DNA of 64,000 bases from Bolinopsis microptera (lineage: Eukaryota; Ctenophora; Tentaculata; Lobata; Bolinopsidae), in the NCBI RefSeq assembly GCF_026151205.1, contig NC_087074.1, forward strand, positions 620,001-684,000, read 5' to 3'. Positions 1,665-57,500 of this stretch are shown piece after piece. The translations under genes were made by a program, and so were the position numbers. How positions within the stretch are numbered: the first letter of the stretch is position 1; each line of letters begins with the position of its first letter. The notes beneath the pieces were generated by a model. That model had not been told where the DNA came from. It did no database searches and saw only the letters and a list, made by a program, of their open reading frames with translations.

Positions 1665-1698
1665 TTGCTTTAACGTGGCGGGGAGGAGATTGACGAAG
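1665..1698 (+). other. possible short exon after the last acceptor-like repeat
   Basis: After the final CTCAGCAG of the array, 34 bases stay open in one frame and end at ACGAAG|GTATCT, a reasonable donor. No homology is recognised and no flanking exon is visible, because the array runs off the window edge. It is listed only because the array upstream behaves like the acceptor-derived arrays seen elsewhere in this window. The region 1699-1946 shows nothing further. Confidence 0.2.
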
Positions 1699-13179: not shown

Positions 13180-16100
13180 TCAATAATCATCCTCCTCATC
13201 AACTTGCTTCTTGTGCTCTTGCTTGTTGTCTTGTTTGTTGTACAACTCAGCCACCTGCTCCGCTGAGGTGGCCTCCTCTGCTGTTTTGTCATCTCTGATC
13301 CTTATAAAACGGGGGAACCTGAGAGAAATACCCTTATCCGGATCAACCTGCCCGACAGCAGCAGTATAAATAGGAGATATGGTCATGTCAGCACACTTCA
13401 CCTCCCACACCAGAGCCGGCTCAAACCACACATCAGGAGCACTAGACTCCGGGAAGGAGTAGTAAGGTTTAGCTTGAGTAACTATGTGTTGAGCGAGGGC
13501 TGCGTGGTGTCCTGCCAGGTCCTCGTCAGTAAAACCCGTCCCTATCTTACAGATAGCTTGATACTGCTCACTGTCCGGGTCGTAGCAAGCTAACAAGTAT
13601 CCACCATACGAACCTGATCTCTTACCCTTGCCGTTAAACGCTCCGATAACAACCAAATCTAGAGAATCACCACAGCCCTCCAGGTAGTCCTTCTTCACTT
13701 TCAGCCAGTTGTGTGATCGTTTAGCTATCTCATATGTCGCGTCCACGTCCAGTGTCTTGACCATGAGGCCCTCACACTGTCCTTTGATGGATTCTTCCAA
13801 AAAAATTTGGATCTCCTCCGTATCATTACAATCTTTGGCTGTAGCGAATATAAATTGTCCGGGTACTTCTTTAAAAGCGGAGTGGAGGAGTTCCCGTCTC
13901 TTCCTGAAGGGTTCTCTGATGAGACTTTCTCCGTTCAGATAGAGTAGATCAAACGCAAACAAACATACTATTACTTTGATCTCGTTGACGTCCGCATCTT
14001 TTCGTTTCCTTGTGGTCAGAATCTGAAGAAGATGATATAACATATCGTTTTCATTAGTGATATGATCACTTGATATAGCTAAATGGGCTGTTCTAAATAG
14101 AAACATAGGCTTAATTGTCGACTGCAAGAAAGCTTAAGTGTTAAATTAAAAGTACAAAACATAATTGAATTAATACGAATATAAACAAGTTGTTTAAAGG
14201 TTACCTGAAAAGGCAAGATTTGTTCCCTCTCCACATCCCACGCTACCACCTCACAGTCCAGCATGAAACTGTTGGTTCCCTCTGTCAAACAGCTTCCTAT
14301 CCTACTGATAATATCCGGATATTTAGATGTGTTGTTCTCCTGGTTCCTGGAGAAGATACTGATCTCTCCGGTCTCACTGCACTGGATCTGGGCTCGCTCC
14401 CCGTCGTATTTATACTCGCACGTAAATTTAGATCCTTCAAATCTGGTTAGAACCTGAAATCAGATAGATAATAAAGTAAAGAAATGTCAGCAAGCTCACC
14501 GCCCAGAAGCAACATATGAGTGCAGCAAAATTTTGCAATCCTGCACTTGCATAAAATTGCTTTATGTATGGCAAATTTAAAAAATTGAGCGGGCGATTAT
14601 TTGCAAAATGTGTGGCATGCGTGCGGATTCTACTGCAGTGAGTTTCCACAACCTCTGTAACCGCCTATATTGAGCTGCACTAACTGACGTAATTTATCAC
14701 TGCATAAAAAACTACAAACATGATTTAACGAAACTACAAACGCCAAAAAAGGATCCTGACCTCTGAAATACCCTTAGTGGGATGGGCTAACATGGGCTTG
14801 ACGGGAACTCCTGGTGTTAGTTTACAGTACGCAGCACTCTCCAGCACACCGTGTTCCCTGATCATCTCAATAATGTGCTCGAAGTTGGGGAACTCGCAGA
14901 ACGACGTCTTTACCACCTCAGCAGCGTCCTCCTTGGCTGACACCATGTTTTTGGAGGACACGGCACAGTCCTCACTACCCCCAGGAGGGGTGAGGACAGT
15001 GGCGTGGCCTAGAGACACAAGGACCGTCTGGTCTGCTAGACCACACCGCAACTTGCCGAGAAGGGAGCGGGTTATGTAGCGAGCTTCGCTCCCTTGTGCA
15101 GACACCAGCATCTTCTTTATCAGTGCTATCTTCTGGGCTGAGGGGAGAAGTCATTTAAACACGTGTTATAAAAACAAGGCAATAAGTTTACTTGCATTGC
15201 GATGTTCCGCTTTAATATATAACTTTGAAAAGTTAGCTCATAATTAGCACACATCAAGTTTGTTCACAACTTACATTGTCCTTGATTACCGCTTATGGCA
15301 GTTATTTTGAGAAAAGTCTCGAACACCAGCTTTACGGTAAGAGGCTTCGGTTTAAACATCATCTTTTGGTTGGACCGGGAGGATTCTGCTACCAAGCCCA
15401 GGTCTCCTGTAAATAATGCTTACAACTATTGGAGTTCATAGTTTCAGCTCTTAAAAAGAAAATCCTACAATCAGGTGATAATGGACTGACTTCAGTTTGA
15501 ATAGAACTACTACAAACTTACCGAGTTCACTCATTTTAGATTTCTGAGTCTTGATGTTTACCCCACATGCCTCAGCGACTGCCCTCATGACCACCGTCTC
15601 CCCCACACCTAGCTCCACTCCTTTATACGCTGGTGCTACCTGGTATGTTAATTAATTACCTGGTATGTTAATTAATTACCTGGTATGTTAATTAATTACC
15701 TGGTATGTTAACTAATTACCTGGTATGTACAAATATCCTTTGTAATATAATCCTGTGTATCTGAAGATTCAAGATATTTTGTGCAGTGTTCCACCTTATC
15801 TAACCCTTAAGGGATTGGTAGAATTAGCGAGGCTCGACCCTACAACCTATCCATTTTAAATTATCAAAGCTACCACTATACCACCAGCTCTTTAAAAAAT
15901 TATTTCTGACAGAAGTGGGATTCGAACCCACGCTCTTTCGAACTGGTGCCTAAAACCAGCGCCTTAGACCGCTCGGCCATCCTGCCATGAAACAAATTTC
16001 CAAGATGTAGAAGATAACATGTCCACTGCACTGGACATTGTCCAGTAACGTGTTTAATTATGCACACTACAATTATCGTTAAAATAAGTCTTTTATTAAG

Positions 16101-17561
16101 TAAGAAGCAGACCTGGTTAGTACACAGATAGACACAGAGATGTAGATCATCAGGTGTCAAAATACACACGGACCGTAAGAAGTTACTCAGCAACATTGTC
16201 TTTTCTAGTCGCTTTGTCGTTCCTTCTATAACCTGTAATTTGAAAATTACGTGTTTTAATTTAACGTTTTCTTAATAATGGCAGCAATTTAAAAAATAAA
16301 GCGGGCTGGTTTATGAACCATTGTTCGATGTAAAAAATGGCGAATTTTCTTACGAAATACCAGTTTGGTTTGTGTTTTAAGTCAATCGAAATAGAGGATC
16401 AGATTTATCATATAATTTATCAATTTGCTGGCAGTATCGCACGATATAAAATGATTATAAAATGTTCTACAAAAGAATATAGATTAACAAACCTTAAGGT
16501 ATCAGAAAGAGCTTTGTACGGTACATCCTGACCAGATTTCCAGATAGCATCCTTACTTGGAACGTAGCCAGATTTACCCGGATTATAACCACCTGTAGAG
16601 TTAGCTGACACAAGGGATACTCCTTTCGAACCCACACCAGGAGTTTCTATCTCTTTTTTCACAGGTTTAGATTCCGGAGTTTTTGTTTTGGACAATCGAG
16701 GCTTAGACTCCGGGGTTTTCGTTTTTGAGGCTGTGGGAGATTTTGTTTCTTTTTTTAGGACAGGAGACTTGCCTTTGCTTTTCGTGACAGAGGCCTCCTC
16801 GGAAGATTCGGGACATAAAGTTTCTTTAAGATTAACCTTCAGACTATTATCCTTAGTACTGTTGTCTGATTTATCAGCACAATTTTCAGAGCTCACTGCT
16901 CGTTTCTTGTAAGAGAAACTAGAGAGTTTAGAGGATACAGGAGATGGTCGGATGGCGGAGGATGGTGGAGGTGATGTTTCCATCTCCTCTGGAGATGAGA
17001 TATCCTCAGGTATCTGCACTTTTAGTTTGTTAACATGGGGGGTCTGGACCCTGTTCTTAAGTTTAGATCTGAATTCTTTAGACAGTTTGGCAGTTTTACG
17101 TTTAGGTATAGAGGAAGGGGCGGCAGGGCTCGGTGTGCAAGGAGATGCTGGTTTAGTGGTTATTAAGGTGTTTTCAGTATCTGACCCACTTTCGTCGGAC
17201 TCTAGTATTTGAACCCTTCTTCGTTTTCCTGATTTTATGGGAGAAGAGGTGGGTGAAGATTGCGGGTCCTCCCTCGGTTCCTCATCTGCTATTCTTACTT
17301 TTTTAACTTCCGTCACAGCTGCTTCAACCTCATCCCTTTTAACTCCTTTTGGCGAATTCTTTGATTTCCCGTTGTTTTTGCTTTTGAATTTTTAGTCTGG
17401 GGCTTTTCTTTCAAAACATTTGGAGATTTTGAAGATTTTGAAGAGGCGGAATTTGAAGAAGTGGTGGAATTTGACGGTGGAGATTTTAGTTGACTGAAAG
17501 GGCTTGAGGAAGAGGCCTTATTGGAGAAGAAGGAAGTGATGGACTTTTGATTCTCCGACAT
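13180..17561 (-). CDS. LIG1: DNA ligase I, ATP-dependent, eight coding exons
   Basis: Seals nicks during Okazaki-fragment joining and excision repair in the nucleus. Exons on the - strand: 17561-16493, 16232-16113, 15639-15522, 15406-15275, 15137-14761, 14453-14205 and 14022-13180; the first block may contain a small extra intron, giving eight. The start [12 protein letters not shown] is a PCNA-binding PIP box, followed by a long Ser/Lys/Pro-rich disordered tail. Then come the DNA-binding domain (KYL.. region ending [18 protein letters not shown]), the nucleotidyltransferase core with the adenylated lysine in [62 protein letters not shown], and the OB fold to WEVKCAD and [15 protein letters not shown]. 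All catalytic motifs are intact. Between about 17340 and 17400 the tail changes frame without a usable intron; an A-run indel is likely. A tRNA gene lies in the 15640-16112 intron. Confidence 0.96.
15640..15728 (-). repeat. 20-bp tandem copies of a ligase 3' splice site
   Basis: On the gene strand the unit is GTAATTAATTAACATACCAG, about four copies, ending flush with the exon that starts at 15639. Every unit begins GT and ends AG, so each joint reads CAG|GT and is both an acceptor and a weak donor. The exon-proximal AG is the one that keeps the protein frame. Confidence 0.93.
15826..15890 (-). other. tRNA-derived SINE-like fragment
   Basis: On the - strand TGGTGGTATAGTGGTAGC (A-box region) is followed after about 30 bases by GGTTGTAGGGTCGAGCC, which resembles a Pol III B box. 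The cloverleaf is too degenerate for a functional tRNA. It lies about 20 bases beyond the tRNA-Leu, in the same ligase intron and orientation. Confidence 0.5.
15894..15899 (-). terminator. Pol III oligo-T terminator of tRNA-Leu
   Basis: A run of six T on the tRNA strand starts eight bases after the tRNA 3' end, as expected for RNA polymerase III termination. Confidence 0.7.
15907..15986 (-). tRNA. tRNA-Leu (anticodon UAG)
   Basis: The 80-nt class II tRNA has a fully paired acceptor stem (GGCAGGA with TTCTGTC, allowing G-U pairs) and discriminator A. The D-arm has A box TGGCCGAGCGG; the anticodon arm is CTGGT-TTTAGGC-ACCAG with anticodon TAG; a short variable arm and T-arm with B box GGGTTCGAATCCC follow. 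There is no intron and no encoded CCA. It sits in a DNA ligase intron on the ligase strand, with its own internal Pol III promoter and a T-run terminator. Confidence 0.96.
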
Positions 17562-19132
<1,571 letters not shown>

Positions 19133-22607: not shown

Positions 22608-22638
<31 letters not shown>

Positions 22639-27578: not shown

Positions 27579-30500
27579 CTACATTTTAAGTAGCTGCGCA
27601 ACTGTGGCTCGCTTCGTCCTGTCTTTCTTCAGACATACTTCCAGAATCTGTCTGATATCTTGATACTGTAACTTTTCCGGAATGTTTATAGGTTCAGTTG
27701 ATGTTATCGCTAAATACTTCATCTATGGGGGTTGATTTTTGCGGTGAGGTTTTATAACATTGCTAGTTTGCTTAGGTAATACTCAGAATTTTATTTATAA
27801 TTATTACTTATTCAGATAAATTCCAAGTATAGTTAGCTTACGAAGGAAATGTTAAAAATGAGAGAAATAATAAAAACCTGCATTTTCTCTATGTGTTGAT
27901 AAGGAGTCACGCCAAAACACATTTTAAATAGAATACACCCCAGAGAATACACGTCACTCCTGTATCCCAACACGTTCGCTTCTGCATCTCCAAACGTTCC
28001 TGATAACATCTGAGGTAGGTAGCGTTTAGTATAAACAACTAGTTACCATAGTTACACTACTAGTTACCATAGTTACACTACTAGTTACCATAGTAACACT
28101 ACTAGTTACCATAGCTTAGTAACACTACTAGTTACCATAGTAACACTACTAGTTACTACAACATCTGAGGTAGGTAGCGTTTAGTATAAACAACTAGTTA
28201 CCATAGTTACACTACTAGTTACCATAGTAACACTACTAGTTACCATAGTAACACTACTAGTTACCATAGCTTAGTAACACTACTAGTTACCATAGTAACA
28301 CTACTAGTTACCATAGTTACACTACTAGTTACCATAGTAACACTACTAGTTACCATAGTAACACTACTAGTTACCATAGTTACACTACTAGTTACCATAG
28401 TAACACTACTAGTTACCATAGCTTAGTAACACTACTAGTTACCATAGCTTAGTAACACTACTAGTTACTACAACATCTGAGGTAGGTAGCGTTTAGTATA
28501 AACAACTAGTTACCATAGTTACACTACTAGTTACCATAGTTACACTACTAGTTACCATAGTAACACTACTAGTTACTACAACATCTGAGGTAGGTAGCGT
28601 TTAGTATAAACAACTAGTTACCATAGTTACACTACTAGTTACCATAGTAACACTACTAGTTACCATAGTTATACTTCTAGTTACCATAGTAACACTACTA
28701 GTTACCATAGTTACACTACTAGTTACCATAGTAACACTACTAGTTACCATAGTAACACTACTACTCTACTAGTTACCATAGTTACACTACTAGTTACCAT
28801 AGTTACACTACTAGTTACCATAGTTATACTTCTAGTTACCATAGTAACACTACTAGTTACCATAGTAACACTACTACTCTACTAGTTACCATAGTTACAC
28901 TACTAGTTACCATAGTAACACTACTAGTTACTACAACATCTGAGGTAGGTAGCGTTTAGTATAAACAACTAGTTACCATAGTTACACTACTAGTTACATA
29001 GTTACACTACTAGTTACCATAGTAACACTACTAGTTACCATAGCTTAGTAACACTACTAGTTACCATAGTTACACTACTAGTTACCATAGTAACACTACT
29101 AGTTACCATAGTAACACTACTAGTTACCATAGTTACACTACTAGTTACCATAGTAACACTACTAGTTACCATAGCTTAGTAACACTACTAGTTACCATAG
29201 CTTAGTAACACTACTAGTTACTACAACATCTGAGGTAGGTAGCGTTTAGTATAAACAACTAGTTACCATAGTTACACTACTAGTTACCATAGTTACACTA
29301 CTAGTTACCATAGTAACACTACTAGTTACCATAGTAACACTACTAGTTACTACAACATCTGAGGTAGGTAGCGTTTAGTATAAACAACTAGTTACCATAG
29401 TTACACTACTAGTTACCATAGTAACACTACTAGTTACCATAGTTATACTTCTAGTTACCATAGTAACACTACTAGTTACCATAGTTACACTACTATTTAC
29501 CATAGTAACACTACTAGTTACCATAGTAACACTACTACTCTACTAGTTACCATAGTTACACTACTAGTTACCATAGTTACACTACTAGTTACCATAGTTA
29601 TACTTCTAGTTACCATAGTAACACTACTAGTTACCATAGTAACACTACTACTCTACTAGTTACCATAGTTACACTACTAGTTACCATAGTTACACTACTA
29701 GTTACCATAGTTACACTACTAGTTACCATAGTAACACTACTAGTTACCATAGTAACACTACTAGTTACCATAGTTACACTACTAGTTACCATAGTAACAC
29801 TACTAGTTACCATAGCTTAGTAACACTACTAGTTACCATAGTTACACTACTAGTTACCATAGCTTAGTAACACTACTAGTTACCATAGTTACACTACTAG
29901 TTACCATAGTTACACTACTAGTTACCATAGTAACCTACTAGTTACCATAGTAACCATACTAGTTACCATAGTTACACTACTAGTTACCATAGTAAACACT
30001 ACTAGTTAACCATAGTAACACTACTAGTTACCATAGTTACACTACTAGTTACCATAGTAACACTACTAGTTACCATAGTTACACTACTAGTTACATAGCT
30101 TAGTAACACTACTAGTTACCATAGTAACACTACTAGTTACTACAACTTCTGAGGTAGGTAGCGTTTAGTATAAACAACTAGTTACCATAGTTACACTACT
30201 AGTTACCATAGTTACACTACTAGTTACCATAGTAACACTACTAGTTACCATAGTAACACTACTAGTTACTACAACATCTGAGGTAGGTAGCGTTTAGTAT
30301 AAACAACTAGTTACCATAGTTACACTACTAGTTACCATAGTTACACTACTAGTTACCATAGTAACACTACTAGTTACCATAGCTTAGTAACACTACTAGT
30401 TACCATAGTTACACTACTAGTTACCATAGTTACACTACTAGTTACCATAGTAACACTACTAGTTACCATAGTTACACTACTAGTTACCATAGTTACACTA

Positions 30501-33500
30501 CTAGTTACCATAGTAAGTAGTAACACTACTAGTTACCATAGTTACACTACTAGTTACCATAGTTACACTACTAGTTACCATAGTAAGTAGTAACACTACT
30601 AGTTACCATAGTTACACTACTAGTTACCATAGTTACACTTCTAGTTACTATAACATCTGAGGTAGGTAGCGTTTAGTATAAACAACTAGTTACCATAGTT
30701 ACACTACTAGTTACCATAGTAACACTACTAGTTACCATAGTTACACTACTAGTTACCATAGTAAGTAGTAACACTACTAGTTACCATAGTTACACTACTA
30801 GTTACCATAGTTACACTTCTAGTTACTATAACATCTGAGGTAGGTAGCGTTTAGTATAAACAACTAGTTACCATAGTTACACTACTAGTTACCATAGTAA
30901 CACTACTAGTTACCATAGTTACACTACTAGTTACCATAGTAACACTACTAGTTACCATAGTTACACTACTAGTTACCATAGTAACACTACTAGTTACCAT
31001 AGTTACACTACTAGTTACCATAGTAAGTAGTAACACTACTAGTTACCATAGTTACACTACTAGTTACCATAGTTACACTTCTAGTTACTATAACATCTGA
31101 GGTAGGTAGCGTTTAGTATAAACAACTAGTTACCATAGTTACACTACTAGTTACCATAGTAACACTACTAGTTACCATAGTTACACTACTAGTTACCATA
31201 GTAACACTACTAGTTACCATAGTTACACTACTAGTTACCATAGTTACACTACTAGTTACCATAGTAACACTACTAGTTACCATAGTAACACTACTAGTTA
31301 CCATAGTTACACTACTAGTTACCATAGTAACACTACTAGTTACCATAGTTACACTACTAGTTACCATGGTTACACTACTAGTTACCATGGTTACACTACT
31401 AGTTACCATAGTTACACTACTAGTTACCATAGTAACACTACTAGTTACCATAGTTACACTACTAGTTACCATAGTTACACTACTAGTTACCATAGTAACA
31501 CTACTAGTTACCATAGTAACACTACTAGTTACCATAGTTACACTACTAGTTACCATAGTTACACTACTAGTTACCATAGTTACACTACTAGTTACCATGG
31601 TTACACTACTAGTTACCATGGTTACACTACTAGTTACCATAGTTACACTACTAGTTACCATAGTAACACTACTAGTTACCATAGTTACACTACTAGTTAC
31701 CATAGTTACACTACTAGTTACCATGGTTACACTACTAGTTACCATGGTTACACTACTAGTTACCATAGTTACACTACTAGTTACCATAGTAACACTACTA
31801 GTTACCATAGTTACACTACTAGTTACCATAGTTACACTACTAGTTACCATGGTTACACTACTAGTTACCATGGTTACACTACTAGTTACCATGGTTACAC
31901 TACTAGTTACCATAGTAACACTACTAGTTACCATAGTTACACTACTAGTTACCATAGTAACACTACTAGTTACCATAGTTACACTACTAGTTACCATGGT
32001 TACACTACTAGTTACCATGGTTACACTACTAGTTACCATAGTTACACTACTAGTTACCATAGTAACACTACTAGTTACCATAGTTACACTACTAGTTACT
32101 ACTTTACTACAACATCTGAGGTAGGTAGAGTTAAATAATTTATATAATATATTTTTTATCAAGTCCTTTTTTTGGTTTAATAAGGTTAAAACGAAGGTGC
32201 ATACTGCATACTCGAGTATACTGAGTATACTCATTGAGTAGTTTCCCATTATTATAGAGTATAACTCAACTACAGTAAGCTTCTAAAGTAACAAGATAAG
32301 GGTACAGATATAATGGCTCCTGGGGTACCTCATGAAACAATAATTCGAGCATTCCTGCTTCACCATGTACGTGTGCTTCACGGTTATGACGTTGCCAGGC
32401 TTATAATTTGAAAATATCATCCCTATTGTTTTTCGATTAATCGAAGCTATCTCTGAAGAATACAATTTCGGGCTATAAATAATGCAGCTACTTTGCCTGT
32501 TCCTCTGTTCACGCTCATATTGTCCGAGCACATTGTTCTCGGCTGGTCTTAATTCGACCGTTTGTACTTCATATCTAGCTGTCCTGACTGTCGTTTTCTG
32601 TTTGAATTTGTAAACAATTGTGAGTCGTGATTTTTTATACCACTGTGAATTTATTTCCGGACCTGCAAGATGGATGAAACATACGTAGACTCTAGCAAAT
32701 TAAACGTAATGATCAGTTACTCCCACCAAAACACTGAGCTGATGTTGAGAATCAGGGACCTGCTATCTTCTAGCAACTACGAGGTATGGGTGGACACTAA
32801 CCTTAAGGCAGGGTGTCAGTTTTTCAAGAATATTGGCAGTGCTGTTATTGGATGTGATGTCTTCTTGTTCATTTTGACTGAGCACTCTGTTGCTTCCAAG
32901 TTTTGCGAAGATGAGGTGTCTTTGGCTCGGATCTCCAACAAGAAAATATTGCCTGTCACTTTTTGCAATCCCATGGATATTTCGTCGGAAATGAACCCTG
33001 GTCTTCGTCTAATTTTGAGTTGCACTCAATGGGTATGCCTTGATCCAAAAGTTGATGACGATCAAAACGATCGTCAAATTGTCCAAAATCTTAACCAAGC
33101 CTTACAATTAGAACATACTGAAAATTCGAGGTTGGATATCTATGATATCGCTTTCTCTGAAGAAGAATCTGCCGCTTCCGTAGGACAAAATAATAAAACC
33201 CTTCATCGAACTGATTGTAATCTATTTTTAGAACCATTTTGGAAGAGACATTTTGGAGAAACAAAGAAGAAAGTAGAGGTCAAGAAAGTGCTAGCGCATA
33301 TAAAGGAAGACTACAAGTTTGATTATGAGAAATTAGGTTTTGATGACACGCAAACGGCCAAAGCTTTGGCTCTGTGGTGCTTTGACTTACAACATCATGA
33401 TACAGTCGTTACAAGAGCTCAATATGACATGCTGGTGTACGCCAATGGATACTTGAAAGGGAAAGAAGAAGGGCCTGATACATTTTGGATACGATGTAAG

Positions 33501-39500: not shown

Positions 39501-42500
39501 TAACCTCGTCTTGTATCATTTGACTGATACCAAAGTCAATCAGCTTCAATTTCCCTTTCACTAACATAAAGTTCTGAGGTTTCAAATCCTGCAAGAATAC
39601 ATAATATTTTAGAGCCGAGCGTGCTTAAAATCAGATGTTGTAAATTTAACAAATGTTTTGACAATCTTAAACCTACACAATATAATGACAGCACAAACCT
39701 TGTGGACTATGCTATAACAAACCTTGTGGACTATGCTATAACAAACCTTGTGGACTATGCTATAACAAACCTTGTGGACTATGCTATAACAAACCTTGTG
39801 GACTATGCTATAACAAACCTTGTGGACTATCCTATAACAAACCTTGTGGACTATGCTATAACAAACCTTGTGAACTATGCTATAACATACCTTGTGGACT
39901 ATGCTATAACAAACCTTGTGGACTATGCTATAACAAACCTTGTGGACTATGCTATAACAAACCTTGTGGACTATGCTATAACAAACCTTGTGGACTATGC
40001 TATAACAAACCTTGTGGACTATGCTATAACAAACCTTGTGGACTATGCTATAACAAACCTTGTGGACTATGCTATAACAAACCTTGTGGACTATGCTATA
40101 ACAAACCTTGTGGACTATGCTATAACAAACCTTGTGAGTTGTGAACTATGCTATAACAAACCTTGTGGACTATGCTATAACAAACCTTGTGGACTATGCT
40201 ATAACAAACCTTGTGGACTATGCTATAACAAACCTTGTGGACTATGCTATAACAAACCTTGTGGACTATGCTATAACAAACCTTGTGGACTAAGCTATAA
40301 CAAACCTTGTGGACTATGCTATAACAAACCTTGTGGACTATGCTATAACAAACCTTGTGGACTATGCTATAACAAACCTTGTGGACTATGCTATAACTCT
40401 ATAACAAACCTTGTGGACTATGCTATAACAAACCTTGTGGACTATGCTATGGGAGTGTATACAGTGGACTGCTCGCAACATCTGCTGCCACAACAAGCAC
40501 ACCTCGTAATAGGACTGCTTGCAGGGCGACTTTACAAGCCAAGGCGTCTGCTGCATGTAGGTGTGCAGATCTGTCTCTCCAAACTCCAGTACCATACTCA
40601 GACGACAGCGCTCTACTCTAAACTGGGATACAGATATTGTTAGCTTGTACCATACTCAGACGACAGCGCTCTACTCTAAACTGGGATACAGAGATTGTTA
40701 GCTTGTACCATACTCAGACGACAGCGCTCTACTCTAAACTGGGATACAGATATTGTTAGCTTGTACCATACTCAGACGACAGCGCTCTACTCTAAACTGG
40801 GATACAGATATTGTTAGCTTGTACCATACTCAGACGACAGTGTTCTACTCTAAACTGGGATATAGATATTGTTAGCTTGTACCATACTCAGACGACAGCG
40901 CTCTACTCTAAACTGGGATACAGATATTGTTAGCTTGTACCATACTCAGACGACAGCGCTCTACTCTAAACTGGGATATAGATATTGTTAGCTTGTACCA
41001 TACTCAGACGACAGCGCTCTACTCTAAACTGGGATACAGATATTGTTAGCTTGTACCATACTCAGACGACAGTGCTCTTCTCTAAACTGGGATACAGATA
41101 TTGTTAGCGTGTACCATACTCAGACGACAGCGCTCTACTCTAAACTGGGATCTACAGATATTGTTAGCTTGTACCATACTCAGACGACAGCGCTCTACTC
41201 TAAACTGGGATACAGATATTGTTAGCTTGTACCATACTCAGACGACAGCGCTCTACTCTAAACTGGGATACAGATATTGTCAGGATGTACCATACTCAGA
41301 CGACAGCGCTCTACTCTAAACTGGGATACAGATATTGTTCGCTTGTACCATACTCAGACGACAGCGCTCTACTCTAAACTGGGATACAGATATTGTTAGC
41401 TTGTACCATACTCAGACGGACAGCGCTCTACTCTAAACTGGGATACAGATATATTGTTAGCTTGTACCATACTCAGACGACAGCGCTCTACTCTAAACTG
41501 GGATACAGATATATTGTTAGCTTGTACCATACTCAGTACGACAGCGCTCTACTCTAAACTCTGGGATACAGATATTGTTAGCTTGTACCATACTCAGACG
41601 ACAGTGCTCTACTCTAAACTGGGGATACAGATATTGTTAGCTTGTACCATACTCAGACGACAGTGTTCTACTCTAAACTGGGATACAGATATTGTTAGCT
41701 TGTACCATACTCAGACGACAGCGCTCTACTGTAAACTGGGATACAGATATTGTTAGCTTGTACCATACTCAGACGACAGCGCTCTACTCTAAACTAGGAT
41801 ACAGATATTGTTTAGCTTGTACCATACTCAGACGACAGCGCTCTACTCTAAACTGGATACAGATATTGTTAGCTTGTACCATACTCAGACGACAGCGCTC
41901 TACTGTAAACTGGATACAGATATTGTTAGCTTGTACCATACTCAGACGACAGCGCTCTACTCTAGACTGGGATACAGATATTGTTAGCTTGTACCATACT
42001 CAGACGACAGTGCTCTACTCTAAACCTGGGATACAGGTATTGTTAGCTTGTACCATACTCAGACGACAGCGCTCTACTCTAAACTGGGATACAGATATTG
42101 TTAGCTTGTACCATACTCAGACGACAGTGCTCTACTCTAAACTGGGATACAGATTTTGTTAGCTTGTACCATACTCAGACGACAGTGCTCTACTCTAAAC
42201 TGGGATACAGATATTGTTAGCTTGTACCATACTCAGACGACAGTGCTCTACTCTAAACTGGGATACAGATATTGTTAGCTTGTACCATACTCAGACGACA
42301 GTGTTCTACTCTAAACTGGGATACAGATATTGTTAGCTTGTACCATACTCAGACGACAGCGCTCTACTCTAGACTGGGATTACAGATATTGTTAGCTTGT
42401 ACCATACTCAGACGACAGTGCTCTACTCTAAACTGGGATACAGATATTGTTAGCTTGTACCATACTCAGACGACAGCGCTCTACTCTAAACTGGGATACA

Positions 42501-45500
42501 GATATTGTTAGCTTGTACCATACTCAGACGACAGGCGCTCTACTCTAAACTGGGATACAGATATTGTTAGCTTGTGCCATACTCAGACGACAGCGCTCTA
42601 CTCTAAACTGGGATACAGATATTGTTAGCTTGTACCATACTCAGACGACAGCGCTCTACTGTAAACTGGGATACAGATATTGTTAGCTTGTACCATACTC
42701 AGACGACAGCGCTCTACTCTAAACTGGGATACAGATATTGTTAGCTTGTACCATACTCAGACGACAGCGCTCTACTCTAAACTGGGATACTGATATTGTT
42801 AGCTTGTACCATACTCAGACGACAGCGCTCTACTCTAAACTGGGATACAGATATTGTTAGCTTGTACCATACTCAGACGACAGTGCTCTACTCTAAACTG
42901 GGATACAGTAAGGTTTTTTTTTTACAAATGTCTCAGACCCATAGCTAGATCTGTGAATTTTAGGCAGACCCACTCGACAGCGGCCAAATTTTGCGCATTA
43001 TGAGCCCCAAGCCCGATACCCACTTTGCCTCCCAATTATATTATCATCTCGTAACTTCATAATGAAGGTTCCGTTATTCATTTAAAGATTAAGTTTTTTC
43101 GATTCTCGGCACGTAGCCCGACACGACACGTAGCCGGGGCGAAGCTTCTTTGGTTGGCTAGGGAGGGGGGAAGGCGCAGCCCCCCCAGAAAATTTTTGAG
43201 AAATTATGTGTTTTAGACGACATTTGGCTTTAAAGAAATTTTTAGGACAGTAATAATCAGACATCACAATAATACAAAGTTGGGGGGCTAGGGGGGCGCA
43301 GCCCTGGCCTTCGGAAAATTTTTGAGAAATAGGGTGTTCCAGACGACATTTGTAGGACAGCAATAATCAGACATTACAATAATACAAGGTTGGTGGGCTG
43401 GGGGGGGGGGGGGGGGCGCAACCCCCGGAAAATTTTTGAGAAATAGGGTGATTCAGACGACATTTGGCATTAAAGAAATTTGTAGGAGAGCAATAATCAT
43501 ACATCAGAATAATATAAAGTTGGTGGGCTAGGGGAGCGAACCCCCAGGAAAATTTTTGAGAAATAGGGTGATTAAAACGGCATTTGGCATTAAAGAAATT
43601 TGGGGATAGTAATAATCAGACATCACAATAATATAAAGTTGGGGGGCCGGGGGGGGGGGGGGGGGGGCGCAGCCCCCCAGAAAATTTTTGAGAAATAATG
43701 TGTTTTAGACGACATTTGGCATTAAAGAAATTTGTAGGACAGTAATAATCAGACATCACAATAATCTAATAATACAAAGTTGGGAGGCTAGGGGGGCGCA
43801 CCCCCCGGAAAATTTTTGAGAAATAGGGTGATTCAGACGACATTAGGCATTAAAGAAATTAGTAGGGCAGTAATAATCCTGAGACATCACAATAATATAA
43901 AGTTGGTTGGCTAGGGAGGGGGGGGGGGGGGCGCAGCCAATCAGAAAATTTTTGAGAAATTATGTGTTTTAGACGACATTTGACATTAAAGAAATTTGTA
44001 GGACAGTAATTATAATCAGACATCACAATAATAAGTTGGAGGGCTAGGCAGGCGCAGCCCTGGCCTTCGGAAACTTTTTGAGAAATAGGGTGTTCCAGAC
44101 GACATTTGTGGGACAGCAATAATCAGACATTACAATAATACAAGGTTGGTGGGCTGGGGGGGTGGGCGCAGTAATAATCAGACATCACAATAATATAAAG
44201 TTGGGGGACTGGGGGGGGGGGGGGGCGCAGCCCCCAAGAAAATTTTTAGAAATTATTTGTTTTAGACGACATTAGGCATTAAAGAAATTTGTAGGACGGC
44301 GATAATACAAAGTTGGGGGTGCAGCCCCCGGAAAATTTTTGAGAAATAGGGTGTTCCAGACGACATTTGTGAGACAGCAATAATCAGACATTACAATAAT
44401 ACAAGATTGGTGGGCTGGGGGGGGGGCGCAGTAATAATCAGACATCACAATAATATAAAGTTGGGGGACTGGGGGGGGGGGGGGGGCGCAGCCCCCAAGA
44501 AAATTTTTAGAAATTATTTGTTTTAGACGACATTAGGCATTAAAGAAATTTGTAGGACGGCGATAATACAAAGTTGGGGGTGCAGCCCCCGGAAAATTTT
44601 TGAGAAATAGGGTGTTTCAGACGACATTTGGCATTAGAAATTTGTAATTTCAGACATCACAATAATACAAAGTTGGGGGCTAGGGGGGAACTCAGTACTT
44701 GTCACATTGAATAAGTACATATTGTATAGTGGGATTTGGGAATAATTTACGAAATGCTAAAGTCGATTGCCTGTCGTGTCGTTTAATCAAACAGTCATAA
44801 ACACAGCCCACTTACCAGGCGACCATTGCATGGGGACTAGGGGGCTTATTTTTTTTGGGGTTCAATTTTTTTCCGGGGGTCTTCCCCTTGGCTACGTGTC
44901 TGCATTCTAGTTGCCAGACCCACTCTATTAGAGTGCAGACTCAACATTTTGGTTGCCAGACCCACTATTCTAGAGTCCAGACCCACAATTCTGGTTGTCA
45001 TATCTCCTATATTCTAGTTCATAGACCCCCAATTCTGGTTGACAGAGTGAAGAATTACCATTCTGGTTGCCAGATTCACTCTTCTAGAGAGGAGACCCAC
45101 TCTTCTAGTAGGTACAGAGTCAAGACCCACTATTCTAAAATGCAGACCCACCATTCTGGTTGCCAGACCCACTCTTCTGAGGCGAAGACCTACCATTCTG
45201 GTTGCCAGCCCCACTCTTCTAGAGTGTAGACGCACCATTCCGATTGCCAGACCCACTATTCTTGAGTGAACACCCACCTTTCGGGTTGCCGGACCCACTA
45301 TTCTAGACTCTAGACTCCAGACGCACAATTCTGGTTGCCATATATCCTATATTCTAGTTTAGACCCCCAATTCTGGTTGACACTTGACAGAGTGTAGACT
45401 TACCATTCTGGTTGCCAGACCCACTCTTCTAGAGTGAAGACCCACTATTCTAGAATTCTTACCCACCATTCTTGTTGCCAGACCCACTCTTAGCTAGAGT

Positions 45501-48500: not shown

Positions 48501-51500
48501 ATTTGCGTTATACATGGCAAGTATCTGGACTTATGATAACTTAGGATCTCCATCAATCATAAATTCCTCTCAGATTCCCAGGCTGCATTTAAAGCGCTTA
48601 ACAGCACCAGTTTTAACTCCAGGTTCGTTCTGAACATCTCAGACCAACTCACTAGGTATTCACATCGAGTAGGACTTCGTTCCAGGACATTAAGGAGTAT
48701 ACGGTAAAGAACTAGCGGAAGAATTCGCAAGGGACGATCAATCCAACAACATCCCCATAGGACCAGAACCCTTCCTCCCAAATAGGCCACACTCAGTGAC
48801 AAAGGAACATTCCACTTGTGATGTTCCTCCACAAATTAAATACAGGAACTTTTATTTTTCTGGAACTCACATCAGATGGCTAACATGGTCGCTTTCAGAA
48901 TAGGTCACAGCCCACTAGTTTATTTTCAGAACGTGGCAAACAACGTCAACTTCAAGACGCAAGATTGCGAACACTTTTCAGGAGAAGCAGCAACATCCCA
49001 GCACCTCCTCTACAAGTGCATCCAGATCATGACGTTCAGAATGAGAATAATTGGTAAACTCTACCTTAACACCAGTAAACTACATCATATCTTCAAATTT
49101 GTGGAACAGTCGACAAGACTGGATAGGGAAAACTCTTTTGGGTAACCTCCTTGGATTCTTCACCAGGAACTTTCGCTAAACCCCATACTAGGAACTCAAC
49201 CTAGGCCCATCTCCGCATAGAGACATATCTCCCAGGCTTTGACCTTGCTCGGAAGTCCCTTGTCTACCCGCAGAAGTACTACAACGGAAGTGGGTTTGCT
49301 CTGAGACAGGTAGTGACAGCTTCAAGACTCCAGGGGTCTGTTGCATTGATATTTATTATTTTATGATTTCGTATATACTTTGGGAGTCCTGGCGTGCAGC
49401 TAGCAGGAGTTGCATTCTGTGGGCACGGTGAGAAGGCCTCCATCTTAACGTAAGAGGCCAGAAACCGTTGACCAGAACAGAGAGAGAGAGAATATCAACA
49501 AATAAAGATTGTTTAATTTTTGCAAAAAATTTCTCGTCATGTGACAACCCTTCCCAACCCCCCTCAACCCCCTACCCCTCCCCCCCTAAAAAACTCATCG
49601 GATTTTTGCTTCCCGCGAACATGATTTTTTCTGAAAATTTTTGTCAAGCCAGATCTGTAAATCTATCAAATATGTAAAAAAAAAACCTTAGGATACAGAT
49701 ATTGTTAGCTTGTACCATACTCAGACGACAGCGCTCTACTCTAAACTGGGATACAGATATTGTTAGCTTGTACCATACTCAGACAACAGCGCTCTACTCT
49801 AAACTGGGATACAGATATTGTTAGCTTGTACCATACTCAGACGACAGTGCTCTTCTCTAAACTGGGATACAGATATTGTTAGCTTGTACCATACTCAGAC
49901 GACAGCGCTCTACTCTAAACTGGGATCTACAGATATTGTTAGCTTGTACCATACTCAGACGACAGCGCTCTACTCTAAACTGGGATACAGATATTGTTAG
50001 CTTGTACCATACTCAGACGACAGCGCTCTACTCTAAACTAGGATACAGATATTGTTAGCTTGTACCATACTCAGACGACAGCGCTCTACTCTAAACTGGG
50101 ATACAGATATTGTTAGCTTGTACCATACTCAGACGACAGCGCTCTACTCTAAACTGGGATACAGATATTGTTAGCTTGTACCATACTCAGACGACAGCGC
50201 TCTACTGTAAACTGGGATACAGATATTGTTAGCTTGTACCATACTCAGACGACAGCGCTCTACTCTAAACTGGGATACAGATATTGTTAGCTTGTACCAT
50301 ACTCAGACGACAGTGCTCTACTCTAAACTGGGATACAGATATTGTTAGCTTGTACCATACTCAGACGACAGCGCTCTACTCTAAACTGGGATACAGATAT
50401 TGTTAGCTTGTACCATACTCAGACGACAGCGCTCTACTCTAAACTGGGATACAGATAATGTTAGCTTGTACCATACTCAGACGACAGCGCTCTACTCTAA
50501 ACTGGGATACAGATATTGTTAGCTTGTGCCATACTCAGACGACAGTGCTCTTCTCTAAACTGGGATACAGATATTGTTAGCTTGTACCATACTCAGACGA
50601 CAGCGCTCTACTGTAAACTGGGATACAGATATTGTTAGCTTGTACCATACTCAGACGACAGCGCTCTACTCTAAACTGGGATACACATATTGTTAGCTTG
50701 TACCATACTCAGACGACAGCGCTCTACTCTAAACTGGGATACACATATTGTTAGCTTGTACCATACTCAGACGACAGCGCTCTACTCTAAACTGGGATAC
50801 ACATATTGTTAGCTTGTACCATACTCAGACGACAGTGCTCTACTCTAAACTGGGATACAGATATTGTTAGCTTGTACCATACTCAGACGACAGCGCTCTA
50901 CTCTAAACTGGGATACACATATTGTTAGCTTGTACCATACTCAGACGACAGTGCTCTACTCTAAACTGGGATACAGATATTGTTAGCTTGTACCATACTC
51001 AGACGACAGCGCTCTACTGTAAACTGGGATACAGATATTGTTAGCTTGTACCATACTCAGACGACAGCGCTCTACTCTAAACTAGGATACAGATATTGTT
51101 AGCTTGTACCATACTCAGACGACAGCGCTCTACTCTAAACTGGGATACAGATATTGTTAGCTTGTACCATACTCAGACGACAGCGCTCTACTGTAAACTG
51201 GGATACAGATATTGTTAGCTTGTACCATACTCAGACGACAGCGCTCTACTCTAGACTGGGATACAGATATTGTTAGCTTGTACCATACTCAGACGACAGT
51301 GCTCTACTCTAAACTGGGATACAGATATTGTTAGCTTGTACCATACTCAGACGACAGCGCTCTACTCTAAACTGGGATACAGATATTGTTAGCTTGTACC
51401 ATACTCAGACGACAGTGCTCTACTCTAAACTGGGATACAGATTTTGTTAGCTTGTACCATACTCAGACGACAGCGCTCTACTCTAAACTGGGATACAGAT

Positions 51501-54500
51501 ATTGTTAGCTTGTGCCATACTCAGACGACAGCGGTCTACTCTAAACTGGGATACAGATATATTGTTAGCTTGTACCATACTCAGACGACAGCGCTCTACT
51601 CTAAACTGGGATACAGATATTGTTAGCTTGTACCATACTCAGACGACAGCGCTCTACTCTAAACTGGGATACAGATATTGTTAGCTTGTACCATACTCAG
51701 ACGACAGCGCTCTACTCTAAACTGGGATACAGATATTGTTAGCTTGTACCATACTCAGACGACAGCGCTCTACTCTAAACTGGGATACAGATATTGTTAG
51801 CTTGTACCATACTCAGACGACAGTGTTCTACTCTAAACTGGGATACAGATATTGTTAGCTTGTACCATACTCAGACGACAGCGCTCTACTCTAAACTGGG
51901 ATACAGATATTGTTAGCTTGTACCATACTCAGACGACAGCGCTCTACTCTAAACTGGGATACAGATATTGTTAGCTTGTACCATACTCAGACGACAGCGC
52001 TCTACTCTAAACTGGGATACAGATATTGTTAGCTTGTACCATACTCAGACGACAGTGCTCTACTCTAAACTGGGATACAGATATTGTTAGCTTGTACCAT
52101 ACTCAGACGACAGCGCTCTACTCTAAACTGGGATACAGATATTGTTAGCTTGTACCATACTCAGACGACAGCGCTCTACTCTAAACTGGGATACAGATAT
52201 TGTTAGCTTGTACCATACTCAGACGACAGCGCTCTACTCTAAACTGGGATACAGATATTGTTAGCTTGTACCATACTCAGACGACAGCGCTCTACTCTAA
52301 ACTGGGATACAGATATTGTTAGCTTGTACCATACTCAGACGACAGCGCTCTACTCTAAACTGGGATACAGATATTGTTAGCTTGTACCATACTCAGACGA
52401 CAGCGCTCTACTCTAAACTGGGATACAGATATTGTTAGCTTGTACCATACTCAGACGACAGCGCTCTACTCTAAACTGGGATACAGATATTGTTAGCTTG
52501 TACCATACTCAGACGACAGCGCTCTACTCTAAACTGGGATACAGATATTGTTAGCTTGTACCATACTCAGACGACAGCGCTCTACTCTAAACTGGGATAC
52601 AGATATTGTTAGCTTGTACCATACTCAGACGACAGCGCTCTACTCTAAACTGGGATACAGATATTGTTAGCTTGTACCATACTCAGACGACAGCGCTCTA
52701 CTCTAAACTGGGATACAGATATTGTTAGCTTGTACCATACTCAGACGACAGCGCTCTACTCTAAACTGGGATACAGATATTGTTAGCTTGTACCATACTC
52801 AGACGACAGCGCTCTACTCTAAACTGGGATACAGATATTGTTAGCTTGTACCATACTCAGACGACAGCGCTCTACTCTAAACTGGGATACAGATATTGTT
52901 AGCTTGTACCATACTCAGACGACAGCGCTCTACTCTAAACTGGGATACAGATATTGTTAGCTTGTACCATACTCAGACGACAGCGGCTCTACTCTAAACT
53001 GGGATACAGATATTGTTAGCTTGTACCATACTCAGACGACAGCGCTCTACTCTAAACTGGGATACAGATATTGTTAGCTTGTACCATACTCAGACGACAG
53101 CGCTCTACTCTAAACTAGGATACAGATATTGTTAGCTTGTACCATACTCAGACGACAGCGCTCTACTCTAAACTGGGATACAGATATTGTTAGCTTGTAC
53201 CATACTCAGACGACAGCGCTCTACTCTAAACTGGGATACAGATATTGTTAGCTTGTACCATACTCAGACGACAGTGTTCTACTCTAAACTGGGATACAGA
53301 TATTGTTAGCTTGTACCATACTCAGACGACAGCGCTCTACTCTAAACTGGGATACAGATATTGTTAGCTTGTACCATACTCAGACGACAGCGCTCTACTC
53401 TAAACTGGGATACAGATATTGTTAGCTTGTACCATACTCAGACGACAGCGCTCTACTCTAAACTGGGATACAGATATTGTTAGCTTGTACCATACTCAGA
53501 CGACAGCGCTCTACTCTAAACTGGGATACAGATATTGTTAGCTTGTACCATACTCAGACGACAGCGCTCTACTCTAAACTGGGATACAGATATTGTTAGC
53601 TTGTACCATACTCAGACGACAGTGCTCTACTCTAAACTAGGATACAGATATTGTTAGCTTGTACCATACTCAGACGACAGCGCTCTACTCTAAACTGGGA
53701 TACAGATATTGTTAGCTTGTACCATACTCAGACGACAGCGCTCTACTCTAAACTGGGATACAGATATTGTTAGCTTGTACCATACTCAGACGACAGCGCT
53801 CTACTCTAAACTGGGATACAGATATTGTTAGCTTGTACCATACTCAGACGACAGTGCTCTACTCTAAACTGGGATCTACAGATATTGTTAGCTTGTACAA
53901 TGTACCATACTCAGACGACAGCGCTCTACTCTAAACTGGGATACAGATATTGTTAGCTTGTACCATACTCAGACGACAGTGTTCTACTCTAAACTGGGAT
54001 ACAGATATTGTTAGCTTGTACCATACTCAGACGACAGCGCTCTACTCTAAACTGGGATACAGATATTGTTAGCTTGTACCATACTCAGACGACAGTGCTC
54101 TTCTCTAAACTGGGATACAGATATTGTTAGCTTGTACCATACTCAGACGACAGCGCTCTACTCTAAACTGGGATACAGATATTGTTAGCTTGTACCATAC
54201 TCAGACGACAGCGCTCTACTCTAAACTGGGATACAGATATTGTTAGCTTGTACCATACTCAGACGACAGTGCTCTACTCTAAACTGGGATACAGATATTG
54301 TTAGCTTGTACCATACTCAGACGACAGCGCTCTACTCTAAACTGGGATACAGATATTGTTAGCTTGTACCATACTCAGACGACAGTGTTCTACTCTAAAC
54401 TGGGATACAGATATTGTTAGCTTGTACCATACTCAGACGACAGCGCTCTACTCTAAACTGGGATACAGATATTGTTAGCTTGTACCATAGTCAGACGACA

Positions 54501-57500
54501 GTGCTCTTCTCTAAACTGGGATACAGATATTGTTAGCTTGTACCATACTCAGACGACAGCGCTCTACTCTAAACTGGGATACAGATATTGTTAGCTTGTA
54601 CCATACTCAGACGACAGCGCTCTACTCTAAACTGGGATACAGATATTGTTAGCTTGTACCATACTCAGACGACAGTGCTCTACTCTAAACTAGGATACAG
54701 ATATTGTTAGCTTGTACCATACTCAGACGACAGCGCTCTACTCTAAACTGGGATACAGATATTGTTAGCTTGTACCATACTCAGACGACAGCGCTCTACT
54801 CTAAACTGGGATACAGATATTGTTAGCTTGTACCATACTCAGACGACAGCGCTCTACTCTAAACTGGGATACAGATATTGTTAGCTTGTACCATACTCAG
54901 ACGACAGTGCTCTACTCTAAACTGGGATCTACAGATATTGTTAGCTTGTACAATGTACCATACTCAGACGACAGCGCTCTACTCTAAACTGGGATACAGA
55001 TTATATTGTTAGCTTGTACCATACTCAGACGACAGTGTTCTACTCTAAACTGGGATACAGATATTGTTAGCTTGTACCATACTCAGACGACAGCGCTCTA
55101 CTCTAAACTGGGATACAGATATTGTTAGCTTGTACCATACTCAGACGACAGCGCTCTACTCTAAACTGGGATACAGATATTGTTAGCTTGTACCATACTC
55201 AGACGACAGCGCTCTACTCTAAACTGGGATACAGATATTGTTAGCTTGTACCATACTCAGACGACAGTGCTCTACTCTAAACTGGGATCTACAGATATTG
55301 TTAGCTTGTACAATGTACCATACTCAGACGACAGCGCTCTACTCTAAACTGGGATACAGATATTGTTAGCTTGTACCATACTCAGACGACAGTGTTCTAC
55401 TCTAAACTGGGATACAGATATTGTTAGCTTGTACCATACTCAGACGACAGCGCTCTACTCTAAACTGGGATACAGATATTGTTAGCTTGTACCATACTCA
55501 GACGACAGTGCTCTTCTCTAAACTGGGATACAGATATTGTTAGCTTGTACCATACTCAGACGACAGCGCTCTACTCTAAACTGGGATACAGATATTGTTA
55601 GCTTGTACCATACTCAGACGACAGCGCTCTACTCTAAACTGGGATACAGATATTGTTAGCTTGTACCATACTCAGACGACAGTGCTCTACTCTAAACTAG
55701 GATACAGATATTGTTAGCTTGTACCATACTCAGACGACAGCGCTCTACTCTAAACTGGGATACAGATATTGTTAGCTTGTACCATACTCAGACGACAGTG
55801 CTCTACTCTAAACTGGGATCTACAGATATTGTTAGCTTGTACAATGTACCATACTCAGACGACAGCGTTCTACTCTAAACTGGGATACAGATATTGTTAG
55901 CTTGTACCATACTCAGACGACAGCGCTCTACTCTAAACTGGGATACAGATATTGTTAGCTTGTACCATACTCAGACGACAGTGCTCTACTCTAAACTAGG
56001 ATACAGATATTGTTAGCTTGTACCATACTCAGACGACAGCGCTCTACTCTAAACTGGGATACAGATATTGTTAGCTTGTACCATACTCAGACGACAGCGC
56101 TCTACTCTAAACTGGGATACAGATATTGTTAGCTTGTACTTTATTATGCCTCAAATAAGAATTACTAAGAATGATATGCTTCATCGACACGATGATAAAA
56201 TCTAAGGAAACTCACCGTGTGTAAAAATATAATACCGATATTTAATTCTGTTAAATTATAAAATTTTGCAACACGAATAAATATTCAATGAAATATTCAA
56301 TGAAATGGTGCTTCTCATATGTTGCAGAATGCTCCTGTAAAGCTATAATAAGAATCCTGTTCTTTTCGTGGGGCAGCTAATTCAGTACCGTAGCACCATA
56401 CTTGTAGTACATACAGTACAAATGTATATATTATACATGTAGTACATACAGTACTAATGTATACATTATACAAAGTAATAAAATATTCATTATAAAATAG
56501 AATTCTTCACCTCGTGATAAAAGAGATTAATAATACAGTCCTCACCTCGTGATAAAAGAGATTAATAATACAGTCCTCACCTCGTGATAAAAGAGATTAA
56601 TAATACAGTCCTCACCTCGTGATAAAAGAGATTAATAATACAGTCCTCGTTTTTCAGGTTTTGTAAAAGTTCGATCTCCCGCCTCATCTCGTCATTACTC
56701 TGAGGATTGAGCTTTTGCAGGCTCACCACTTTAATTGCCACCATGACGTCACGTGATCTATCTACACCTTTGTAAACCATACAGGAGGCTCCTTTTCCTA
56801 TCTCCTTCTAAAAATAATTTGTCTCTAATAAAATGTAGATTACAAATGTAATATTGTGTTACGTATATATTATGAATAATATTCTGTCTTCAAAAATAGC
56901 AACTAATAAATTTCCAGACTACAGATCTACAGGTACACACTTTAATTCCATCATATTTACTGAAATCTAAGAAGTTAGCTACCTTCCACACATCGAACTC
57001 GTTGCCAGCAATAGTGACTGGTGCCATAGCTCCGCTATAGTGCTCCTTTGCAGGGAATACAGACTTCAAACTGGCCGCTTCTTGCATCTTCTTAACTTGA
57101 TTCTGGGATAATATTAAGATAATTAATCGTGCATCACTACGAATAAAAGATTTTCATCTTTTACCTTGGCTAAATCTAAAACATCGCCAAGTTAACTATC
57201 AGCAAACAAAACCACAACTTTTCAGATATTTATCCTAAACTTACCGCAAGATATTTGTTCTCTTTTTCGAGCTCATGTATTTTATTTTTCAAATCGTTTA
57301 GTTGTCCATCGGGAGAGAATGCTGCTTTCAAGCTTGCTTGTTCTTGCATCTTTTTAACTTGTGCCTGTAGGTAAGTTATCAAAATTAATCAACTTAACTA
57401 GGATGTAACATATCCATTCTTACTTTATATAATTATAGGAGTATCTACACTCATCAGTCGCTTCTTCAATAAAAGTAAATATCAGTTCTCAACTTAACAA

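What the first reader, a model, noticed from the sequence alone, without database searches (positions are those of the whole stretch)
15640..56650. Tandem repeats that are copies of splice junctions, at six exon edges in three genes
In ligase (15639), the discoidin-like gene (37411) and TTK (28009, 40434, 40622, 56616), the repeat next to the exon copies the exon-intron junction in register, usually with exonic bases, and donors and acceptors are both affected. Units mostly begin GT and end AG. This fits the tandem-duplication model of intron gain and expansion and gives each exon a field of decoy or alternative splice sites. I know of no description of a genome where this recurs so densely. 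Limits: any array containing AGGT can be phased as GT...AG, so the strength lies in the exonic bases and the flush contact with exons.
Basis: partly seen in the sequence, partly recalled or inferred. Interest (0 to 1): 0.92.

Follow-up and report, generated by a model that had tools for sequence, protein, structure and literature searches.

The report
Minisatellites born across splice junctions
In a comb jelly genome, short DNA repeats have repeatedly grown out of the exact edges between exons and introns, filling introns with copies of real splice sites; the repeats are probably tolerated rather than useful, and one appears to have spread to other chromosomes as satellite DNA.

Summary
The window (C3:620001-684000) matches the Bolinopsis microptera assembly. 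Each array copies its junction in register with 3-34 exonic bases, giving 2 to 130 further copies, splice dinucleotides all intact. Intron gain is not supported: no affected intron has the same array at both ends, and a relative holds one of these introns at about 132 nt without the repeat (845 here). Best reading: a tandem duplication spanning an existing junction is tolerated because the exon-proximal copy still splices; the array then grows into the intron. It recurs outside the window: gelsolin-like and SMC2 acceptors, an ADAM-like donor, one unnamed donor. No excess over neutral placement is shown: 1 observed against 1.19 expected in an unselected 200 kb; 4 or 5 against 0.82 in this selected, repeat-rich window. 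The 58-bp TTK-acceptor unit also matches over 72 kb of C5 and 16.6 kb of C1, so a splice junction probably founded a satellite. Use of the copied sites is untested.

The parts
15637..15728 (-). LIG1 intron 2 acceptor array: 20-bp unit ATTAATTAACATACCAG|GTA (17 intron + 3 exon bases), 4.6 copies; true acceptor at 15639
28004..32099 (-). TTK/Mps1 intron 8 acceptor (28009): dispersed 21-bp family with 11 further copies of a 39-bp junction segment (34 intron + 5 exon bases) in higher-order repeats
37406..37475 (+). Discoidin-like gene donor (37411): 23-bp unit, 6 exon + 17 intron bases, 3 copies in all; exon edge inferred, no reference protein
39693..40450 (-). TTK/Mps1 intron 7 donor (40434): 24-bp unit, 17 exon + 7 intron bases, 29 further copies; no other place found by the genome search
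40589..42908 (-). TTK/Mps1 intron 6 acceptor (40622): 58-bp unit, 24 intron + 34 exon bases
49691..56139 (-). Second block of the same 58-bp TTK-junction unit in the same intron, about 110 copies by TRF
56507..56648 (-). TTK/Mps1 intron 6 donor (56616): 35-bp unit, 31 exon + 4 intron bases, 3 further copies; no other place found by the genome search
13183..16983 (-). LIG1 coding exons (7), from P0001
27582..58750 (-). TTK/Mps1 coding exons (10), from P0123

Best explanation
These are minisatellites that began as tandem duplications spanning an existing exon-intron junction. Such a duplication leaves an intact junction next to the full exon: the upstream copy at a donor, the downstream copy at an acceptor. 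The mature mRNA can therefore stay the same, while the duplicated exonic bases become intron. Selection tolerates it, the array then grows and is homogenised into the intron, and the intron lengthens. No function of the copies is needed. Shown: register, exonic bases, existing junctions, absence of the repeat in a relative at one intron, recurrence at four other exon edges. Inferred: the duplication mechanism, neutrality, and that splicing prefers the exon-proximal copy.
For: Junctions match NCBI-named proteins exactly. 3-34 exonic bases lie in the units. Relative P0121 aligns to P0123 with a 44-aa insert exactly at HSIVHK|DLKP, i.e. 132 nt, while Bolinopsis has 845 nt, 741 of them inside the 24-bp array. 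P0121 also shows a single copy of what became the 58-bp unit (...VQANNNIPSLSQ|FKVEHCRLSMVLEY). P0124 aligns without gaps across 40622, 40434 and 28009, so the 34 exonic bases are old coding sequence. Independent cases: gelsolin-like acceptor C1:5041047 (homology continuous across the junction), ADAM-like donor, unnamed donor C1 about 4.1835 Mb, SMC2 acceptor C2 about 10.9466 Mb. In the unselected C1 sample 1 of 28 array clusters spans a junction against 1.19 expected. AG is intact in 132 of 132 TTK 58-mer copies, so no sign that decoys decay.
Against: In the window, observed exceeds the neutral expectation (4 or 5 against 0.82), which might mean that junctions are favoured; but the window was selected. 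The neutral model is crude (TRF clusters, uniform placement, predicted genes on C1). No RNA evidence shows that decoys are ignored.
Confidence: 0.72

Rival explanations
1. Splice junctions are mutational or selective hot spots for array birth (for example through transcription- or splicing-linked DNA breaks, or because AG|GT flanks act as microhomology), so junction arrays exceed neutral placement.
For: Window excess 4-5 against 0.82. Arrays holding the donor motif AGGTAAGT three times: 1260 matches against 329 for the same-dinucleotide motif AAGGTAGT and 11 for the reversed motif, with equal single-copy counts in 220 kb of repeat-masked sample (7 and 7). 3 of 10 arrays picked by these two motifs span a junction, one flank read for each.
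Against: Matches are not independent arrays: on C1 plus the first 2.72 Mb of C2 I count 7 donor-motif and 3 control-motif arrays in the listings, too few to tell apart. C1 sample 1 against 1.19 expected. AAGGTAGT can itself be a weak donor, so it is not a clean control. The further control AAGTAGGT did not complete.
Confidence: 0.15
2. Intron gain by tandem duplication of AGGT-containing exon sequence: the arrays made the introns.
For: AG|GT at 4 of 6 junctions, units partly exonic. A duplication crossing an intron-exon boundary made a new intron in potato (PMC4974935, abstract).
Against: No affected intron has the same unit at both ends. A relative has one of these introns without the array.
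Confidence: 0.03
3. The copied sites are used: arrays of dual AG|GT sites act in recursive or stochastic splicing and regulate LIG1, TTK and others.
For: All counted copies keep GT or AG; the first 40434 decoy would add 8 residues in frame. Human UBC splices by a tandem array of dual-specific sites (PMC10809524, abstract and passages).
Against: 17 of 19 modelled decoys give stops and one shifts the frame; the array is absent in a relative at one junction; homogenisation alone can keep sites intact.
Confidence: 0.06
4. The exon edges were taken from an older satellite (exonisation), or the arrays are assembly artefacts.
For: The 58-bp unit also matches on C5 and C1.
Against: The 34 exonic bases code a kinase stretch aligned without gaps in P0124 and P0121. 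The C5 TRF consensus equals the TTK unit while its copies differ from it. Different units at different genes make artefact unlikely (inference).
Confidence: 0.04

Closest known systems
Minisatellite giving multiple splice donors in the interferon-induced 6-16 transcript (Turri et al. 1995; only its reference entry seen, in PMC2915984; content recalled)
   Same: Minisatellite units carry a donor at an exon edge
   Different: One human gene; here several genes, acceptors too, and one unit found on other chromosomes
Internal tandem repeats at exon-intron boundaries in human segmental duplications (PMC2812944, passages)
   Same: Minisatellite-size units (30 bp on average) at exon-intron boundaries change introns
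   Different: There put forward as making novel introns in recent paralogs; here existing introns of conserved genes expand
Dual-specific AG|GT sites in tandem repeats, UBC (PMC10809524, abstract and passages)
   Same: AG|GT repeated in register; 792 human introns reported inside tandem repeats
   Different: UBC repeats are coding and spliced stochastically; here the copies lie in introns and their use is unknown
Intron gain by tandem duplication crossing an intron-exon boundary, potato RdRp (PMC4974935, abstract)
   Same: Duplication crosses an intron-exon boundary and copies its signals
   Different: It made a new intron; here no new intron is seen, but expansion of existing ones

Membership tests
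Intron gain by tandem duplication | Intron bounded by two copies of the duplicated segment | tested here: not met
   Different arrays at the two ends, or an array at one end only
Intron gain by tandem duplication | Intron absent in relatives | tested here: not met
   40434/39588 intron present in P0121 as a 132-nt read-through; the other affected introns were not tested
Junction-spanning minisatellite | Unit holds exonic and intronic bases of the adjoining real junction, in register | tested here: met
   five of six edges by reference protein, 37411 by frame only
Junction-spanning minisatellite | Copies are used as splice sites in RNA (6-16 type) | not testable with these tools
   No RNA reads available
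Dual-specific splice site array (UBC type) | AG|GT in each unit | tested here: inconclusive
   4 of 6 junctions AG|GT; 28009 AG|AT, 40622 AG|TT
Dual-specific splice site array (UBC type) | Same element spliced as donor and as acceptor | not testable with these tools
   No RNA reads
Satellite DNA | Long tandem array at more than one chromosomal place | tested here: met
   58-bp unit: TTK intron (8.8 kb in two blocks); listed matches from C5:5080769 to 5153028 and C1:19014987 to 19031542 (listing cut off); 3.5 kb of continuous array read at the C5 left edge

The most novel reading that the evidence does not exclude
Splice junctions are a regular birthplace of tandem repeats in this ctenophore, and the TTK/Mps1 exon 7 acceptor founded a 58-bp satellite (24 intron + 34 coding bases) that left its gene and now lies over some 72 kb of another chromosome: a satellite whose founder is still a working splice junction.
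Probability: 0.55. Interest if true: 0.72.

Novelty: new variant of a known kind. Interest (0 to 1): 0.6.

Why it matters
Satellites and long introns usually have no traceable beginning. Here the founding unit carries coding bases, so birthplace, direction and in one case the state before duplication can be read. It gives a natural set of near-identical competing splice sites (up to 130 extra at one exon) for testing how the spliceosome picks the exon-proximal one, and a route by which short introns become long without transposons.

Tried and rejected
Intron gain rejected as above. AGGT phasing artefact rejected: 3-34 exonic bases lie in register and two of six junctions are not AG|GT. Exonisation of a satellite rejected by relatives P0121 and P0124. 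The reversed-motif control (11 matches) looked like a hundredfold excess but proved too lenient: a same-dinucleotide motif gave 329 matches, and 3 arrays against 7 in the same stretch, so no excess is claimed. A permissive gene finder gave many false tiny exons; a stricter one recovered 9 of 17 reference exons exactly. From its 16 genes on C1 I kept 9 for the count and dropped 7 (low complexity, transposon-like or array-coded, by my reading of the sequences); before dropping, 7 of 135 (strict) or 15 of 158 (looser) predicted junctions lay in arrays, which I judged mostly false exons in low-complexity arrays. A first TTK query was too short and found only fragments. My first decoy model for 40434 used regular 24-nt steps although the second step is 32; redone at the real sites. 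Papers: ctenophore with tandem repeat, splice site and exon-intron; Bolinopsis microptera with tandem repeats and introns; ctenophore with minisatellite returned 2, 0 and 2 papers, none on this by title and abstract. The library holds open-licence PMC only.
Full report
Identity. The window is C3:620001-684000 of a 264.65-Mb genome. Its LIG1 matches an NCBI protein named for Bolinopsis microptera on a contig of exactly the length of C3; the kinase gene likewise. The organism is therefore this ctenophore, by inference from protein names.

The observation. I mapped the two NCBI-named proteins to the window base by base. LIG1 has 6 introns and TTK/Mps1 has 9. Each lies in a tandem array whose unit contains the junction in register, with 3, 5, 17, 34 and 31 exonic bases. 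The sixth edge, 37411 in a discoidin-like gene, has 6 exonic bases but rests on reading frame and a sub-threshold domain match. Every further copy counted keeps its GT or AG. In the 15 introns 64% of bases are array.

Is it chance? The exonic bases exclude a phasing artefact. For a rate test I collapsed each intron to one copy per array and asked how often a randomly placed ancestral unit would cover a junction. Window: 18 array clusters, 0.82 expected, 4 observed by TRF, 5 with the higher-order repeat at 28009 (Poisson P 0.010 and 0.0016). This window was selected for the pattern and is unusually repeat-rich (39% against 9% in C1). In C1:5000001-5200000, chosen without regard to content, 9 of 16 predicted genes gave 61 introns and 28 clusters: 1.19 expected, 1 observed. 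Pooled, 5 or 6 against 2.01 gives P 0.054 or 0.017, but this includes the selected window. Array coverage 3-10 bases inside predicted introns was 3.8%, against 8.7-11.1% at 60-150 bases in the stricter run; the looser run showed the opposite slope. So recurrence is real, but an excess over neutral placement is not shown.

Independent cases. The one in the C1 sample is an acceptor of a gelsolin-like gene (Pfam Gelsolin 2e-56) with up to 9 exonic bases copied; homology to villin and gelsolin runs through the junction, YFWL|GSHSTTDERG. I then searched the whole genome for AGGTAAGT three times at spacings of 16-46 and read the upstream flank of the first six arrays (five unit families). Two adjoin an exon in register. 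One is an ADAM-like donor: 36-37 exonic bases with 1-2 mismatches in a 44-bp unit, ADAM22 in PDB E 2e-9, Pfam Reprolysin only below its cut-off. The other is a donor of an unnamed gene: 40 of 44 unit bases equal the exon end, strong acceptor, coding score 5.9, about the 90th percentile of open segments, best-scoring internal exon on that strand in 4 kb. The other four do not: two share homologous flanks, one is low-complexity, one shows no open frame over 8 codons. Of four arrays found with the control motif AAGGTAGT, one spans the acceptor of an SMC2 exon (9 exonic bases with one mismatch; PDB SMC2 E 1e-43); on the one flank read, the other three showed no exon edge at the array. In all, 3 of 10 arrays so chosen, with the far flank of each unread.

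Existing introns, not new ones. No affected intron has the same array at both ends. P0121, a predicted protein from an unnamed source, aligns to Mps1 with a 44-residue insert exactly at the 40434/39588 intron, which I read as a 132-nt intron read through. Bolinopsis has 845 nt there, 741 of them array; with one unit left it would be about 128. P0121 has one copy of the later 58-bp unit around the 40622 acceptor, with valine codons at both ends where Bolinopsis has GTA, which fits a start by microhomology; this is inference from protein. P0124 aligns without gaps across the junctions, so the 34 exonic bases are old coding sequence.

A satellite from a splice junction. For the 24-bp and 35-bp units the genome search, which skips very common words, found no other place. 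The 58-bp unit also matched on C5 (listed matches spanning 72 kb) and C1 (16.6 kb); paired C5 and C1 positions sum to a near-constant, so one looks like an inverted copy of the other (listing cut off). At the C5 left edge (L029, 6 kb read) about 59 copies have the TTK unit as consensus and hardly any exon sequence beyond the 34 bases (one match reaches base 36). Copies in the TTK intron differ from the unit at 1-2% of sites; most of those on C5 more. Since the exonic part is old coding sequence, the direction gene to satellite is the simpler one; it is inferred. Whether a TTK copy lies on C5 could not be tested, since that search did not complete.

Mechanism. A duplication spanning a donor leaves the upstream copy next to the exon, and one spanning an acceptor leaves the downstream copy; either way the old mRNA remains possible. 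Later growth adds only intron. That explains exonic bases inside introns, both kinds of edge, and the lack of decay of the copies. Of 19 decoy uses modelled at real sites, 17 bring a stop, one shifts the frame and one, the first at 40434, adds 8 residues in frame.

What is known. Single cases and related classes exist: multiple donors from a minisatellite in 6-16 (reference entry seen only), repeats at exon-intron boundaries in human segmental duplications (PMC2812944, passages), dual-specific sites in tandem repeats (PMC10809524, abstract and passages), and a junction-crossing duplication in potato (PMC4974935, abstract). I found no report for ctenophores. Hence a new variant of a known kind.

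Noticed in passing
window 32649-33956 (+) and about 37220-37850 (+): A TIR-HEAT open frame and the discoidin-like gene lie on the opposite strand inside TTK intron 8; a second TIR-HEAT frame lies at 19136-20464 (-).
   Followed up: partly
window 15907-15986 (-): A tRNA gene sits inside LIG1 intron 2, near the junction array.
   Followed up: no
C5:5.12-5.14 Mb and C1:19.015-19.032 Mb: The two 58-bp satellite stretches look like inverted copies of each other (coordinate sums nearly constant); recent duplication or assembly error.
   Followed up: no
window 28027-32099 and several other contigs: The 21-bp family is dispersed; among the scored hits those on other contigs lack the junction-holding start of the query.
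   Followed up: partly
L030 and L031: The same 32-bp donor-motif array with similar flanks at two places on C1, perhaps carried by a mobile element.
   Followed up: no
window 1-1666 and 18130-18527: Arrays with acceptor-like (CCCCTCAG) and donor-like (AGGTGAGA) units; no exon edge seen beside the ends that I read.
   Followed up: partly
window 40434: The first decoy donor would add eight residues in frame (VCYSIVHK), so an isoform there would be translatable.
   Followed up: no
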